This document shows positions 1,502-57,825 of a stretch of 64,000 nt of DNA, piece after piece. Source of the stretch: Desulfosporosinus youngiae DSM 17734 (GTDB lineage: Bacteria > Bacillota > Desulfitobacteriia > Desulfitobacteriales > Desulfitobacteriaceae); the NCBI RefSeq assembly GCF_000244895.1, contig NZ_CM001441.1, forward strand, positions 3,058,226-3,122,225. The letters run 5' to 3'. The notes beneath the pieces were generated by a model, which did no database searches, was not told the origin of the DNA, and saw only the letters and a list, made by a program, of their open reading frames with translations. A program made the position numbers and the translations under genes. Positions within the stretch are counted from its first letter, which is position 1. Each line of letters opens with the position of its first letter.

Positions 1502-3295
1502 ATGAAGTGGTATAAGTTCGAATGGTTTAACTTTAAGCGGTTTAAATTTAAATGGCCTAAATCCAGGGGGATCAAATTTAGTTGGTTTAATAACTGGAAG
1601 ATGTTCCATAAGATTAACGCTTTAGTCTTTGTCATGGTCGTCTTTATGCTCGGATTAAGTTCGATGGGTTATTATTATTATCGGCAAGCCAACCTGGCCA
1701 TGAATGAAGTCTATACAAATTCCCTGATGTCTGTAAAACTCATCAATGAAACCAATGCCAATGTTCGAATGATTCGTAGTGTCAATATAGAGTTTCTCTT
1801 AGCCCCTCTTGACTCTTCAAAAAAGCAAAGCCTGCTCATTCAGGCCATAGTCCTCAAAGGCTTTATTATGGAATCCCTCGATAATTATTCTCCCCTTGCT
1901 CAAGATCCATTTAAAGCCGCCAAGCTGGCACAAGTAAGAGATACTCTCCAAAGATACGATGAGGGATGGCAAAGGATTGTTGCTTTAATGGAGATGGGCG
2001 ACAAGGAAGCTGCCTACCTATATTTTTCCGATACCCTTACCAAGGATTTAGATGAAATTAACACCTTGCTCCCTGAACTTGTAGACTATAGCAATCAGGA
2101 GGCTAAAAGCACTATTGCCCGCGAAAATATTAACTTTCATAACGCAGAGAAAATGCTGTTCGGACTCCCGCTTGCCGCTGCAATTCTGGCGATTTTCATA
2201 GGGGCGCTAGTGGCCCGTGCGATCTCCAAACCACTGCAGATTATGCTGAAAAAAGTACTGGAACTTGCTGCAGGTGACCTCAGAGTGACCGAGATCAAAA
2301 ATGAAGCCAAGGATGAGACCGGACAATTAGCGCAGGCTTTTCACAGGATGACAGTCAGTTTATCCACTCTGGTAAGAAGAGTCTCAGCGTCATCTGAAGA
2401 AGTAACTGCTTCCGCCCAACAACTCCTTAATATTACTGAACAAGGTTCAAAGGCCTCCGGACAAATTGCCCTGGCCGTGGCTGAAGTGGCAGGCGGAACA
2501 GAAAAACAAGCGGCAGCAGTCAGCGAAACCGTAGCTGCTATAGAACAAATAAGCGCCAATATCCAAATGGCGGCCGAGGCTGGTCAGCTAGTCAGCACCC
2601 TCACAACAAAAACAGCTCTTACAACAGAAGAAGGGCAGCGGGAACTCTTGCAAGCAATTGAACAAATGACCAACATCAGCAAAAGTACTCAAGTCGTGAA
2701 AGAGACCATTACTTCCTTGGCCGATGGCTCTGAACAAATCGCTGACATTGCCAGCCTGATATCCGGTATCACAGAGCAAACAAACCTTCTGGCACTAAAC
2801 GCTGCTATTGAAGCTGCCCGAGCCGGTGAACACGGACGTGGTTTCTCCGTAGTAGCTGAAGAAGTTCGTAAATTAGCAGAAAAAGCGAAAGCTGCAACCG
2901 GACAAATAAGCGCTTTAGTCGCCTTAAACAGGAATAATATTCATCATGCTATTGTTGCTATTGACACAGAAGAGGGCCACGTCAACGACGGGATTAAAAT
3001 GGTGAATAAAGTAGACGATGAGCTGAGTGAAATTCTGAATATGATTAATGAAGTTGCCGAAAAAGTAAGCGGTATTGCCTCTTCCATTCAACAAATGGCA
3101 GGCGGCAGCCAACAAATTGTCTTAGGAGTTCAGGAGATTGGTGCAGTCAGCCAGAGCACAGCTGGACAAGCAGCTAGTGTATCCGCGGCTATTGACGAAT
3201 TCACAGCTTCAATCGATGAGATTAACCTTTCTTGTCAGAACCTGACAAACTTAGCTCAGGGTTTACAAATTGGGGTTAGCAATTTTAGGATCTAA
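1502..3295 (+). CDS. Methyl-accepting chemotaxis protein
   Basis: A 597-residue chemoreceptor. A strong AGAGGAGG site sits about 10 bases before the ATG. Membrane helix 1 lies near residues 38-60, a four-helix-bundle type periplasmic sensor fills ~60-215, helix 2 is near 217-238 ([20 protein letters not shown]), followed by a HAMP domain and a long cytoplasmic signalling coiled coil. The hairpin tip reads [36 protein letters not shown], the region that contacts CheA and CheW, as in other MCPs. The first ~34 residues are an odd extension alternating W/F with K/R. No CheR-binding pentapeptide is seen at the C terminus. It follows the c-di-GMP gene and is separate from the minus-strand che operon. 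Confidence 0.95.
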
Positions 3296-14713: not shown

Positions 14714-14789
14714 TGGTGCGCCACCCAGGATTCGAACCAGGGACCTGCCGATTAAGAGTCGGATGCTCTACCAGCTGAGCTAGTGGCGC
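14714..14789 (-). tRNA. tRNA-Lys (anticodon CTT)
   Basis: A 76-base cloverleaf with the CCA end encoded. The acceptor stem is GCGCCAC/GTGGCGC, the D-loop has AGCTCAGCTGGTAGAGC, and the T-arm contains GGTTCGAATCC. The anticodon loop CTCTTAA at 14752-14758 gives anticodon CTT (14754-14756). The outermost anticodon-stem pair is a T-C mismatch. It is a single-gene unit with its own promoter and two terminators. Confidence 0.95.
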
Positions 14790-20440: not shown

Positions 20441-21202
20441 CTAGCGGTCTCTCGTTATGCGCCGGACTATCGCAGAGGCTAAAGAGGCTGCCCCGAATCC
20501 GTTATCGATGTTCACCACACCGATTCCCGAAGCACAGCTGTTTAACATGCTAAGTAACGCTGCCAACCCTTGGAAGTGAGCACCATATCCCACGCTGGTC
20601 GGCACAGCGATAACAGGTTGTTCCACAAGTCCTCCGACCACGCTTGCTAAAGCGCCTTCCATCCCTGCCACAACAATTATTACTTCAGCGCGGTCCATCA
20701 ATTGGCGCTGTCCAAGCAAACGATGTATCCCTGCAACCCCTACGTCAAAAAGTGTGTCCACGTCATGGCCCATATAACGAGCTGTCAGCCAGGCCTCTTG
20801 TGCTACGGATAAATCTGCCGTTCCAGCTGTCATGATCAAAATCTTACCTGGAATTGCAGGCTCCTTAAGCGGTCTGAGCAAGAGGCAGTGAGCCTGTTGA
20901 TCATAGTATGCCTCCGGAAAATGGGGCAGGATTGTCTCAGCATGATGTGGGTCAAGTCTCGTAGCCAAGACATTTTCAGCCTTTCTGCCTAAGTGCTTTA
21001 AAATAGAAATAATATGGTCTGGTTGTTTTCCCTGACAAAAGATCACTTCTGCTTGCCCTGTTCTTAGGGCACGATGATGATCTAACCGGGCAAAGTCTAA
21101 GTTTTCAAAGGGAAGATCCTTTAATTGGTGTAATGCTTTATCTGGAGAGCAGGAACCTTGGTGAACCGATTCCAAAAGCGCTCTTATAGTCTCCTCATTC
21201 AT
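20441..21202 (-). CDS. larB: LarB, nicotinic acid adenine dinucleotide carboxylase/hydrolase
   Basis: A 253-residue protein of the PurE-related LarB family, which carboxylates and hydrolyses NaAD as the first step of nickel-pincer cofactor synthesis. The C-terminal half shows MTAGTADLSVAQEA, VDTLFDVGVAGIHRLL, EVIIVVAGMEGALASVVGGLV and PVIAVPTSVGYGAHFQG, which are diagnostic. Its ATG overlaps the end of larE by 8 bases, and larC begins 13 bases after its stop, so the three are one translationally linked unit. Confidence 0.95.
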   Translation of the reverse strand: MNEETIRALLESVHQGSCSPDKALHQLKDLPFENLDFARLDHHRALRTGQAEVIFCQGKQPDHIISILKHLGRKAENVLATRLDPHHAETILPHFPEAYYDQQAHCLLLRPLKEPAIPGKILIMTAGTADLSVAQEAWLTARYMGHDVDTLFDVGVAGIHRLLGQRQLMDRAEVIIVVAGMEGALASVVGGLVEQPVIAVPTSVGYGAHFQGLAALLSMLNSCASGIGVVNIDNGFGAASLASAIVRRITRDR

Positions 21203-22028
21203 ATAATGCCTCCCGGGATATGGGATTAAGACTTCCTGATCGCAGTCCCATCAAGTCTAAGGTAACGAATTTGAACCCCAATTCTGACAAGAGGGCACTG
21301 ATTTCTGTATGTTCCTGGATTAATTTCGAAAAATTACTGACCGGAATTTCGATACGCGCAATTTCACCGTGCACTCTTACTCGAGATTCTATGTATCCTT
21401 TTTCATAAAGTATAGCTTCGGCCTGGCCTATGCGTTGAAGCAATTCAAGACTAATTGAATCTCCATAGGGGATTCTGGAGGCAAGACAAGCCATGGAGGG
21501 TTTATTCCAGGTCGTTAAATTCCGAAGGTGTGACAAACTACGAATTTCGGCTTTTGTAAGCCCTACATCATGAAGCGGGCTAATAACCCCTAATTCCTGG
21601 AGAGCAATCCTACCTGGCCGATAATCAAGAACGTCGGAAGCATTTGTTCCTTCGATGACTGTGGCGTTATCTTCTTCCTGATTGTATTCGATAAAGGCTT
21701 TAAAAAGCTTTTTCTTGCAGAAATAACAGCGATTGGGAGGATTGTTTCTGAACTCCGGGAGGTTTAAGACATCAACCTCAATTATCTGCACTTGGAAGTT
21801 GTTTCGTTCAACTAAAGCCAGTGCTTCTTTCTCTTCTTGGGAAGAAATCATAGGCCCGCGCGCAAAAATTCCCTTGCAATTATCTCCTAAAGATTCACGG
21901 GCGACAGCTAAAAGATAAGTAGAATCAACTCCTCCGGAAAAGGCAACCAGGACTTTCTTAAAGGATTTTAGTCGTTCTATCAGTAGGATTTCTTTTTTTT
22001 TGGCCTCTTCTAGTTGAATATTATTCAT
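21195..22028 (-). CDS. larE: LarE, sulfur insertase of nickel-pincer cofactor synthesis
   Basis: A 277-residue PP-loop ATPase. The ATP loop is AFSGGVDSTYLL (residues 30-40). LarE adenylates and sulfurates the carboxylated pyridinium mononucleotide. Three cysteines stand out: C101 and C104 (RCYFCKK) and C181 (MACLASR). The sacrificial LarE of L. plantarum uses one cysteine at the position of C181; LarE types with three cysteines are reported to hold a [4Fe-4S] cluster and act catalytically. This protein has the layout of the second type. It is the first gene of the lar unit; larA is not in the window. Confidence 0.93.
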   Translation of the reverse strand: MNNIQLEEAKKKEILLIERLKSFKKVLVAFSGGVDSTYLLAVARESLGDNCKGIFARGPMISSQEEKEALALVERNNFQVQIIEVDVLNLPEFRNNPPNRCYFCKKKLFKAFIEYNQEEDNATVIEGTNASDVLDYRPGRIALQELGVISPLHDVGLTKAEIRSLSHLRNLTTWNKPSMACLASRIPYGDSISLELLQRIGQAEAILYEKGYIESRVRVHGEIARIEIPVSNFSKLIQEHTEISALLSELGFKFVTLDLMGLRSGSLNPISREALYE

Positions 22029-22090: not shown

Positions 22091-22140
22091 TTTAGAAGTA
22101 GCCCTCTATGACGCTGCTGCGGCACCGGCAGAGGATGAAA
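22091..22140 (+). repeat. 50-nt direct repeat, copy a
   Basis: It starts TTTAGAAGTAGCCC and ends ACCGGCAGAGGATGAAA. Its middle, TGACGC-TGCT-GCGGCA, can fold as a short hairpin with one mismatch. It abuts the end of structured element copy A. Copies b and c are at 22383 and 22765 in the same orientation. Confidence 0.6.
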
Positions 22141-22360
22141 ATCGGGTCGCTTGGGCCGGGCAGCTTCGCCCACATCCGCTTACCTCAGCATTCCGAGACT
22201 CGCCCACTCGCCGGTGCGGGACTCCGCCAAACCTCAGGGTAGTACCTGATGTGAACCTGTGGCTCCGTTTCCCCGCACCGTCTTGTGGGCTTTTACCGCC
22301 TCTCCATGCAATGGGTTCGCTTCTGTGGACGAATCTGCCCTGCTTGCGGGTTTGGGGATT
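22141..22360 (-). repeat. Structured RNA-like element, copy A
   Basis: Read on the minus strand. A 9-bp stem CGGTGCGGG (22272-22280) with CCCGCACCG (22212-22220) encloses an inner stem GCCA/TGGC and a 30-base core (22230-22259) starting CAGGTTCACAT and ending GAGGTT. The core matches copy B at 24 of 30 positions and has the same length, while the enclosing stems differ in sequence but keep pairing. Upstream AAGCGAA and AGACGGT blocks are also shared with copy B. GGGC/GCCC and CTCGG/CTGAG hairpins follow. No convincing coding frame explains it. Function is unknown. Confidence 0.55.
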
Positions 22361-22382
22361 TTTCTGCATGTCTTTGGTTTTT

Positions 22383-22430
22383 TTTCAGAGAGACCCCCAT
22401 GCCGCTGACGCAGCACATCAGAAGATGAAA
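22383..22430 (+). repeat. 50-nt direct repeat, copy b
   Basis: It contains CATGCCGCTGACGCAGCA and ends CATCAGAAGATGAAA, aligned to copies a and c. A run of T residues precedes it. It lies between the inverted structured elements A and B. Confidence 0.55.
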
Positions 22431-22494
22431 AAGATTCCACGAAGTCTTACCAGCCCCCCCCAAAGTTCTGCTTACATTCCCAACAAACTGGCTG

Positions 22495-22742
22495 AAGGAG
22501 CGCTTGTCTGCTAAGCGAATGCGTCAGTGGAGCCGCGCTAAGGCGAGCGCAGACGGTTCGCGTCCCCGTAGCGCGCCGCAGGTTCACATGCAGAAATACC
22601 CAGAGGTTCGGACGCGCTCGCGAACCGTCCAGCGAACCAGCGGCGGAACTCGCAGACGCGTGCAGACCGAAGACACCGTCTTCGCACGAGTTAACACAGC
22701 TGAAAAGCGCTCCGCCCCAGAGCCAGACAGTAGAACTGACCC
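22495..22742 (+). repeat. Structured RNA-like element, copy B
   Basis: Homologous to copy A but on the opposite strand. A perfect 11-bp stem GACGGTTCGCG (22552-22562) with CGCGAACCGTC (22619-22629) encloses AGCGCGCCG (22570-22578) paired with CGG-A-CGCGCT (22609-22618), and a 30-base core at 22579-22608. A 3' domain nests GGCGGA/TCCGCC, AACTCG/CGAGTT and a 7-bp hairpin CGAAGAC-ACC-GTCTTCG (22668-22684). This much nested pairing suggests an expressed RNA. A terminator-like hairpin follows at once. Identity is unresolved; an omega-RNA (HEARO) from an IscB/IsrB-type transposon without its protein is one possibility. Confidence 0.55.
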
Positions 22743-22767
22743 CTGTCTAACACAGGAGGCTTTTTTT
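22742..22767 (+). terminator. Terminator-like hairpin after element B
   Basis: CCTGT (22742-22746) and ACAGG (22752-22756) form a short hairpin followed by AGGC and seven T residues (22761-22767). No protein gene precedes it on this strand, so it would end a transcript of element B. Confidence 0.5.
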
Positions 22768-22813
22768 AGGGTAGCCGCCCATGCCGTTAAGGCATCACCA
22801 GCAGAGGATGAAA
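22765..22813 (+). repeat. 50-nt direct repeat, copy c
   Basis: It starts TTTAGGGTAGCCGCCC, has the hairpin TGCC-GTTAA-GGCA, and ends ACCAGCAGAGGATGAAA. It is the closest relative of copy a and lies just after the T-run of element B. Confidence 0.6.
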
Positions 22814-22881: not shown

Positions 22882-23163
22882 TTATCCATTTTTCCAGGAG
22901 ACTCCAAAACCACCTCTGGGATACTTCCAGTCAATATTGCCAAAGGGACAGCCGATCAGGCATGTGCCGCACTCCAGGCACCCTTCGTATCCAACGGCAA
23001 TGCGTTTTTCCTCTTCATCCCAATCGTAAACATGGGCCGGGCAAAAACGGGTGCAAGGTTTATCCTGGCACTGCTGCAAGCATACGTTAGGATCAGCGAT
23101 CTTAATATGGTTTAATTTATCTGTGTTAAAGCGCACCAAATAGAGTTTATCATCTAATTTCAT
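22882..23163 (-). CDS. fixX: FixX ferredoxin-like protein
   Basis: A 93-residue iron-sulfur protein of the FixX family. Cysteine clusters are VCLQQCQDKPCTRFC and GCLECGTCLIGC, enough for [4Fe-4S] binding, followed by FGNIDWKYPRGGFGV. It forms the ferredoxin part of the FixC electron-transfer dehydrogenase. I chose the ATG at 23161-23163 because it overlaps the fixC stop as ATGA. An in-frame upstream ATG lies inside fixC and has no role. It ends the operon. Confidence 0.93.
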   Translation of the reverse strand: MKLDDKLYLVRFNTDKLNHIKIADPNVCLQQCQDKPCTRFCPAHVYDWDEEEKRIAVGYEGCLECGTCLIGCPFGNIDWKYPRGGFGVSWKNG

Positions 23164-24452
23164 AAGAGCGCCCTCCATGCTCCATAAATATCTTTGATCA
23201 AACCACCTTTAGAACGGTGTTCGAAGGCCATCTTGATGATTTCCTTTTGACGCTGTTTCTTAGGCGTCCCATCCGCTGTTAAATACATCTTAACGGCTTT
23301 AGAGAATAACTTGGGATATACTTTTAAGAGATGGGTATTTTCTTCGAAGAACTTACCCATATGGCGGTAATGGTGGAGATCTTTAAGGACAAAGGAATCT
23401 CTCAGGCGGGTTTCATAAACTGACATAGCATGATCACTGACATCTCCGGCTTTGATAGCCTGAGCCGCGACTTCCCCAGCTATTTTACCTGAAATCATCG
23501 CCAGGTTTGAACCTTCACGATTGAGCGAATTCATGAGCATTGCCGTATCCCCTACAACCATGACTCCTTGCCGATGAAGTTTAGGTACATGTGTGTATCC
23601 GCCTTCGGGAATTAGGTGAGATAAGTATTCCTTCGTTTCTCCGCCTTGAAGAAGCCGCTTAACATAGGGCTTTGATTTTAGGTTTTCCAAGAGATCATTA
23701 GGGGTCCAGTTATTGCGAATCAAAGGCTGAAGAATTGAACCTACACCAATAGAAATAGATTCTTTATTCGTATAGATAAAACCTACACCCATCATCCCGG
23801 CTGTGGAGTCCCCATATAGTTCGATGGTAGCGCCCTGTCCTTCTTCAAGACAAAAACGATCTTCGATCTTTTCTTTAGGCAGAGCGATTACTTCTTTGAC
23901 AGTAACTGCTACTGATTCAGGTCTTAAGGGCTTTGCCAGGCCGGCTTTTACGGCAATAAAGTTATTGACCCCTTCAGCTATAATAACAACTTTAGCCCCC
24001 AGGTCTCCCTCAGCACGTCCTGTACGAACTCCGACAACTTCGTCACCTTTATATAAGAGGTTTTCGACAATTGTTTCAGGAATAATCATGACACCCGCTT
24101 TTTCAGCTTGTTGGGCAAGCCAGCGATCGAATTTGACTCGAAAAACCGAATGGGCATTATAGGGCTCGGAACCCCAAGCCGGATCCCGGTAACCAGCCAT
24201 GATAGACTCATCACCGCTTAACATTGCGATACGCTGCTCAATAATTGGCCGTTCTAAGGGCGCTTCTTTCCAAAACTCCGGCACAATCATGCTGGTTGCT
24301 TTTGTATAAAGTATGCCCCCCATTACGTTCTTGGTTCCTGGATAATCCCCGCGCTCAATGACTACGGTTTTCATGCCTGCTTGTGCAGCACTAAGCGCGG
24401 CGGACAGGCCAGCAGGACCACCGCCGATGACTATTACATCAAAGTTTTCCAT
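23160..24452 (-). CDS. fixC: FixC flavoprotein dehydrogenase
   Basis: A 430-residue FAD protein related to ETF:quinone oxidoreductase. The dinucleotide fold is VIVIGGGPAGLSAALSAAQAG at residues 5-25, followed by GTKNVMGGILY. With FixX it takes electrons from FixAB and passes them to quinone. In studied FixABCX complexes NADH oxidation is bifurcated between quinone and ferredoxin or flavodoxin. It lies 12 bases after fixB and overlaps fixX. Confidence 0.94.
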   Translation of the reverse strand: MENFDVIVIGGGPAGLSAALSAAQAGMKTVVIERGDYPGTKNVMGGILYTKATSMIVPEFWKEAPLERPIIEQRIAMLSGDESIMAGYRDPAWGSEPYNAHSVFRVKFDRWLAQQAEKAGVMIIPETIVENLLYKGDEVVGVRTGRAEGDLGAKVVIIAEGVNNFIAVKAGLAKPLRPESVAVTVKEVIALPKEKIEDRFCLEEGQGATIELYGDSTAGMMGVGFIYTNKESISIGVGSILQPLIRNNWTPNDLLENLKSKPYVKRLLQGGETKEYLSHLIPEGGYTHVPKLHRQGVMVVGDTAMLMNSLNREGSNLAMISGKIAGEVAAQAIKAGDVSDHAMSVYETRLRDSFVLKDLHHYRHMGKFFEENTHLLKVYPKLFSKAVKMYLTADGTPKKQRQKEIIKMAFEHRSKGGLIKDIYGAWRALL

Positions 24453-56794: not shown

Positions 56795-56871
56795 CGGGGC
56801 GTAGCGCAGTTTGGTAGCGCGCTTGGTTCGGGACCAAGAGGCCGTGGGTTCGAATCCCGTCGCCCCGACCA
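56795..56871 (+). tRNA. tRNA-Pro (anticodon CGG)
   Basis: A 77-base cloverleaf with encoded CCA. Acceptor stem CGGGGCG/CGCCCCG, anticodon stem CTTGG/CCAAG around loop TTCGGGA, anticodon CGG at 56829-56831, T-arm with GGTTCGAATCC. It is a single-gene unit with its own promoter and terminator. Confidence 0.96.
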
Positions 56872-57634: not shown

Positions 57635-57657
57635 ATAAACAATTCAATAATCACAAT

Positions 57658-57766
57658 ACTCCTCTGGGGTTGGGTGAAATTCCCTACCGGCGGTAAAGCC
57701 CGCGAGCCTTTTGGCAGATCTGGTGAAATTCCAGGGCCGACAGTAAAAGTCTGGATGAGAAGAGGA
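57658..57766 (+). promoter_or_regulatory. FMN riboswitch (RFN element)
   Basis: The conserved FMN aptamer is complete: GGTGAAATTCCCTACCGGCG, GTAAAGCCCGCGAG, GGTGAAATTCCAGGGCCGAC and AGTCTGGATGAGAAGA. P1 pairs CCTCT (57661-57665) with AGAGG (57761-57765). Bound FMN favours the terminator at 57826. It controls ribD-ribE-ribBA-ribH. Confidence 0.97.
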
Positions 57767-57825
57767 ACAGCTAGTTTTATTTTATAGCGTGATGAACGCT
57801 TATTTAAGCTGCGTCCTTGTTTAAG

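What the first reader, a model, noticed from the sequence alone, without database searches (positions are those of the whole stretch)
22141..22742. Two inverted copies of a structured RNA-like element with covarying stems
Element A (minus strand, 22141-22360) and element B (plus strand, 22495-22742) share a 30-base core of equal length (24 of 30 identical), starting CAGGTTCACAT and ending GAGGTT. The core is closed in A by GCCA/TGGC inside CGGTGCGGG/CCCGCACCG and in B by AGCGCGCCG/CGG-A-CGCGCT inside GACGGTTCGCG/CGCGAACCGTC. The sequences of the stems differ but pairing is kept, the mark of selection on RNA or single-strand DNA structure. Upstream AAGCGAA and AGACGGT blocks are also shared. 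No protein gene explains them. A protein-less HEARO/omega-RNA element of the IscB/IsrB group is one hypothesis, as is an unknown ncRNA.
Basis: partly seen in the sequence, partly recalled or inferred. Interest (0 to 1): 0.8.

Follow-up and report, generated by a model that had tools for sequence, protein, structure and literature searches.

The report
Widespread mobile structured-RNA repeat family
The two elements are copies of a previously uncatalogued family of roughly 180-base hairpin-forming repeats, probably RNA-coding and mobile, that sits at 55 or more places in this Desulfosporosinus genome and recurs in several families of the same bacterial phylum, with a fold preserved by hundreds of compensatory changes.

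Summary
A and B are diverged members of one family: a rod-shaped hairpin of about 180 nt, closed by an end-to-end stem and capped by a near-invariant motif, GGUUCACAU..CAG..CCC.GAGGUU.

A covariance model built only from own-genome A copies finds B (E 1.8e-10) and hits 43 of 74 genomes of the order; a broadened model also hits four of the phylum's genomes outside the order. Over 85 distinct sequences 90% of cells pair, and 50 of 53 pairs show changes on both sides (covariation score 0.709; shuffles 0.204 ± 0.006; slid registers at most 0.105). Nothing in Rfam matches.

The genome carries the family at 55 or more sites. The window copy is a composite insertion of about 720 bp (X-A-X-B-X) between larE and a ferredoxin-like gene; eight aligned Desulfosporosinus relatives lack it there. 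No protein travels with it.

HEARO, TnpB/IscB omega RNA and RAYT-driven REP readings were tested and not met.

Best reading: a protein-less, trans-mobilised repeat (MITE/ERIC-like) whose conserved core is a selected RNA or single-strand structure. The mobilising enzyme, transcription and cellular role are unknown.

The parts
22093..22813 (.). Composite insertion X1-A-X2-B-X3 between larE (minus, 21195-22028) and a ferredoxin-like gene (minus, 22882-23178); ends approximate to a few bases
   Evidence: Joined flanks match as one stretch in other Desulfosporosinus genomes that lack the insert; unit structure
22093..22146 (+). Head repeat X1: GTAG tag plus imperfect palindrome plus GCAGAGGATGAAA; REP-like
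   Evidence: Direct repeats D1 and D3; X search in the own genome and in the window
22159..22339 (-). Element A: structured body, full R1 match 1-181; closing stem GGCAGATTCGTCCACA/TGTGGGCGAAGCTGCC
   Evidence: R1 223 bits (A copies of this kind trained the model); fold z -5.4 for 22141-22375
22230..22259 (-). Apical core of A
   Evidence: Conserved tip motif in the consensus; sequence
22381..22431 (+). Head repeat X2, between A and B
22497..22713 (+). Element B: structured body; closing stem GGAGCGCTT/AAGCGCTCC
   Evidence: R1 match 22506-22667, 53.2 bits, E 1.8e-10; fold z -3.6. R2 score of 107.9 bits is partly circular because B copies are in R2
22579..22608 (+). Apical core of B, 24 of 30 identical to the core of A
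22668..22684 (+). Optional hairpin insert CGAAGACACCGTCTTCG near the closing stem of B; the same insert occurs on the same RNA strand and at the equivalent place in some A copies
   Evidence: also L153
22742..22764 (+). Terminator-like hairpin and T run just after B
   Evidence: Consensus scan, 2 found against 1.0 expected in the region, so weak
22762..22813 (+). Head repeat X3, without a body after it

Best explanation
A and B are two units of an interspersed, protein-less repeat family. The conserved body of each unit is a structure of about 180 nt: one long rod of short helices separated by purine-rich internal loops and capped by a nearly invariant loop. Units are copied to new intergenic sites by machinery supplied in trans; in Desulfosporosinus and Paradesulfitobacterium they carry a REP-like hairpin at the 3' side of the body. 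Shown: dispersal in many copies, tandem units, an insertion at this site absent from relatives, near-identical copies at different places in Paradesulfitobacterium, an apical motif on one strand, and deep covariation. Inferred: that the selected molecule is RNA rather than single-stranded DNA, and that the fold is kept because a mobilising or processing factor recognises it. Not shown: transcription, the mobilising enzyme, any benefit to the host.
For: At least 55 sites in the own genome (count). Insert absent at the orthologous site in eight aligned relatives. Near-identical copies at different loci with shared ends in P. ferrireducens. Tandem arrays. Covariation: score 0.709 against 0.204 ± 0.006, 50 of 53 pairs with changes on both sides, 89.9% of cells paired against at most 43.3% when slid; also 93% and 719 against 177 ± 14 on a narrower set; double changes also on sequence-only alignments. 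G-U cells exceed A-C cells on the proposed strand, 157 to 60 and 96 to 39. No gene family recurs beside the copies.
Against: No transcript data. No promoter was found inside the composite. A strand bias of G-U over A-C would also arise in strand-specific single-stranded DNA hairpins. No target-site duplication within 35 nt and no enzyme identified. Some copies stay at the same place in related species, which a host function would also explain. Covariation alignments were fitted to the model.
Confidence: 0.6

Rival explanations
1. A purely DNA-level element: the hairpin is needed only as folded single-stranded DNA for a transposase or recombinase, and no RNA is made.
For: Constant ends around the body in two genera; a REP-like GTAG palindrome at one side; X can occur without a body; no promoter inside.
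Against: Outside two genera the end sequences differ while the 180-nt body stays; the apical and internal loops are strongly conserved, more than a simple end hairpin needs; Y1 transposases, the known users of such hairpins, are absent from copy-rich G003, G050 and G052.
Confidence: 0.2
2. A host small-RNA family with a regulatory or processing role that duplicates by ordinary recombination, comparable to ERIC acting on mRNA stability.
For: Deep conservation and covariation; orthologous copies kept in related heliobacterium-like genomes and at the xanthine dehydrogenase locus; ERIC elements are reported to affect mRNA stability (PMC2229807).
Against: Copy number varies from none to many between related genomes; orientation to neighbouring genes is near random for A (20 same and 16 opposite for the upstream gene); neighbours are unrelated genes.
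Confidence: 0.15
3. A protein-less HEARO/omega RNA served in trans by IscB, IsrB or TnpB.
For: Similar size; true HEARO with an IscB-like ORF exists in the genus.
Against: No RF02033 match in the own genome or in the related copies scanned. The HEARO fold shown differs, with several hairpins and other conserved sequence. TnpB is absent from copy-carrying G003, G048, G049, G050, G052 and G058. No full copy near the sampled HEARO loci.
Confidence: 0.03

Closest known systems
ERIC, YPAL and similar small mobile repeats of bacteria (MITE-like; PMC2229807)
   Same: Short protein-less intergenic repeats in many copies that fold into long stem-loops
   Different: Here the body is conserved over several families of a phylum with deep covariation and an invariant apical motif; no target-site duplication was seen; sequences were not compared with ERIC or YPAL directly
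REP / BIME with RAYT (TnpA-REP) transposase (PMC2817692, PMC3733652)
   Same: Head repeat X has a GTAG tag followed by an imperfect palindrome and is repeated in composites
   Different: X comes with a 180-nt structured body; no X near the RAYT-like gene of the own genome; Y1 transposases are absent from copy-rich genomes
HEARO RNA (RF02033) and omega RNA of IscB/TnpB
   Same: Structured RNA of similar size in mobile-element context, present in the same genus
   Different: No match to the Rfam model, different fold, no nuclease gene linked
Stem-loop repeat families of PMC2267715
   Same: Same general kind: intergenic repeats with a common predicted fold
   Different: That study's main text does not mention Desulfitobacterium; its sequences were not compared here

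Membership tests
HEARO RNA (RF02033) | Match to the curated covariance model | tested here: not met
   No match in the window or region, own genome or related loci
HEARO RNA (RF02033) | Associated IscB-type HNH gene | tested here: not met
   No recurrent neighbour gene beside 139 copies
TnpB omega RNA | Presence of a TnpB gene in genomes that carry the RNA | tested here: not met
   PF07282 absent from copy-carrying G003, G048, G049, G050, G052, G058
REP/BIME with RAYT | GTAG tag plus short palindrome | tested here: met
   Head repeat X in Desulfosporosinus only; tag as defined in PMC3733652
REP/BIME with RAYT | RAYT/Y1 transposase in the genome, flanked by the repeat | tested here: not met
   No X beside the RAYT-like gene of the own genome; PF01797 absent in G003, G050, G052
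MITE-type repeat (ERIC, YPAL) | Short, protein-less, interspersed, intergenic | tested here: met
MITE-type repeat (ERIC, YPAL) | Terminal inverted repeats | tested here: met
   Closing stem of the body runs end to end; in two genera further end sequence lies outside it
MITE-type repeat (ERIC, YPAL) | Target-site duplication | tested here: not met
   Flank matches no longer than in controls within 35 nt, 35 loci
IS110 bridge RNA | DEDD recombinase partner and programmable loops | not tested
Structured RNA | Compensatory changes above chance | tested here: met
   sequence-only alignments
Structured RNA | A transcript | not testable with these tools
   No RNA-seq available

The most novel reading that the evidence does not exclude
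A bacterial counterpart of a SINE: an ancient non-coding RNA whose conserved structure lets it be mobilised in trans by an unidentified RNA- or single-strand-recognising machinery, spread at tens of copies per genome through several families of the phylum, with lineage-specific DNA ends attached to a conserved RNA core.
Probability: 0.25. Interest if true: 0.85.

Novelty: new variant of a known kind. Interest (0 to 1): 0.64.

Why it matters
To my knowledge few bacterial interspersed repeats show a fold held by compensatory change over such evolutionary distance. A protein-less element with a deeply conserved core and changing DNA ends raises the question of which machinery copies it, and the covariance model makes that question testable by looking for the protein that tracks or binds it. 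The family is also an abundant feature, absent from Rfam, of many sulfate-reducing, dehalogenating and related anaerobes.

Tried and rejected
HEARO/omega RNA. TnpB dependence and Y1/RAYT dependence, by presence and absence. A linked gene, by clustering ORFs within 1.5 kb of 139 copies. Phage or plasmid origin: two exact patterns over viral contigs and one plasmid search gave nothing. Target-site duplication. A cis-regulatory or read-through role inferred from orientation: near random. An early idea that A ends in its own terminator was dropped for the window copy: the pairing seen in some copies is not kept there. Literature searches for this repeat found no description; only open-licence papers were searched. 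REP and RAYT papers gave definitions, but the one read does not mention these genera. Coding potential was not tested by codon statistics; the overlapping ORFs are judged chance because base pairing explains the conservation.

Full report
What is in the window. A on the minus strand and B on the plus strand share a 30-base core with 24 identities, and the stems quoted are present. Both fold much better than shuffled sequence, z -5.4 and -3.6. They are parts of a composite of about 720 bp, X1-A-X2-B-X3, where X is a head repeat with a GTAG tag and an imperfect palindrome ending GCAGAGGATGAAA. No Rfam family matches A or B, even at E up to 10.

It is a repeat family. A DNA search of the own genome, a single contig of 5.66 Mb, gave 68 matching pieces with only 40 candidates scored. 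A search with X and the covariance-model hits added more places. Units occur as X-A, X-A-X, X-A-X-A-X and X-A-X-B-X. Other species have three tandem B copies with a 250-nt period and tandem pairs of A.

Insertion at this site. The joined flanks of the composite match as one stretch in many other Desulfosporosinus genomes. In the eight aligned, the region between larE and the ferredoxin-like gene has only short native sequence where the composite sits here. The composite lies next to a promoter-like sequence for larE at 22084-22056, minus strand, which the relatives keep.

The family is structured. Model R1 was built from ten own-genome A copies with 53 pairs. It finds B in the window at 53.2 bits, E 1.8e-10. 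Because the hairpin is close to palindromic, the reverse strand of A scores about the same, so the score alone is not proof of homology; but the reverse strand of B is not reported, and A and B share the apical motif and an optional inserted hairpin on the same strand. On 73 non-redundant sequences 93% of cells pair, with 719 double-sided changes against 177 ± 14 in shuffles. A broader set of 85 distinct sequences gives 89.9% paired, 50 of 53 pairs with double changes, and a covariation score of 0.709 against 0.204 ± 0.006 (shuffles) and at most 0.105 (slid registers). These alignments were fitted to the model and lean towards it, and a few reverse-strand matches are among the rows; alignments by sequence alone also show double changes in 16 of 47 (A) and 10 of 46 (B) pairs. 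Cells count sequences rather than events, so the figures are not probabilities.

Consensus. Over 53 sequences below 85% identity the strongly conserved letters lie mainly in loops: GGUUcAC.U..rG.a...CCC.gAGGUU at the tip, and purine-rich internal loops. G-U cells exceed A-C cells on the proposed strand, 157 to 60 and 96 to 39. This points to one strand as the selected one and fits RNA, but strand-specific single-stranded DNA is not excluded.

Distribution. Named records put it in many Desulfosporosinus species, in Paradesulfitobacterium ferrireducens, in a Desulfitobacterium MAG and in other MAGs of this part of the phylum. R1 hits 43 of 74 genomes of the order in 12 of 22 genera. A second model, R2, built from R1 hits, hits 18 of 24 hand-picked genomes, most of them with few or no R1 hits, and 12 of 398 genomes drawn from the phylum, four of them outside the order and two of those outside the class. 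The four outside the order carry several copies each. No match was found in viral contigs by two exact patterns or in plasmids.

Ends. In P. ferrireducens near-identical copies at different places share their ends: CCTGAAAAT before the hairpin and ATTTTCATCCATCAGTGGTGCCGC..GCGGCATGGGAGTC after it. The latter is the reverse complement of an X-like repeat, so the two genera share the 3' hairpin. In other lineages the sequences beside the body differ and only the 180-nt body is common. No target-site duplication shows up within 35 nt.

Partner. No gene family recurs beside the copies in a way that suggests a partner; the largest clusters are unrelated metabolic and transport genes or the same locus fetched twice. 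Y1 transposases are missing from G003, G050 and G052, and TnpB from G003, G048, G049, G050, G052 and G058, all of which carry the family. The model finds no full copy near sampled Y1, TnpB or HEARO loci; one partial match (E 0.02) lies at the edge of a locus about 0.5 kb from a TnpB gene of the own genome, where an A remnant was also seen. Absence today does not exclude an enzyme that was lost. Orientation to neighbours is near random for A.

Interpretation. The pattern is that of a protein-less interspersed repeat moved in trans, comparable to ERIC, YPAL and other small mobile sequences (PMC2229807), but with an unusually deep and well-defined fold. That the fold acts as RNA, that it is recognised by the mobilising machinery, and what that machinery is, are inferences or open questions. 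A DNA-only element and a host RNA family remain live rivals. HEARO and omega RNA do not.

Limits. Copy numbers are lower bounds; handles bear no organism names; E-values from the models are rough because calibration was shortened; no expression data were available; the literature search covered open-licence papers only.

Noticed in passing
L128, L154, L192, L200, L172 flanks (Paradesulfitobacterium ferrireducens): Each copy is embedded between runs of degenerate heptamers such as GGAGTCA, GTACTCA, GAATTCA on both sides; origin unknown.
   Followed up: no
L027, L058, L105, L114 and window 22668-22684; doubled in L153: An optional hairpin insert (CGAAGACACTGTCTTCG...) sits at the equivalent place near the closing stem in both A and B copies, as if it were itself a mobile module.
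   Followed up: partly
L030, L031, L113, L114, L115: A longer A subfamily (245-283 nt) has an extra insert of about 65 nt in the arm below the apical core.
   Followed up: partly
L106 1501-1715 and ORF 1794-3038: A genuine HEARO RNA followed by an IscB-like ORF in another genome of the genus.
   Followed up: partly
L332, L334 flanks (G278): Copies in a distant genome are flanked by another GC-rich repeat, ccggtgctacgcaccacccctccaagggagggg.
   Followed up: no
L062 1327-1863 (own genome): A RAYT-like Y1 transposase gene without the head repeat X within 1.5 kb.
   Followed up: partly
window 57656-57770 (+), 14717-14789 (-), 56795-56868 (+): FMN riboswitch and two tRNA genes.
   Followed up: no
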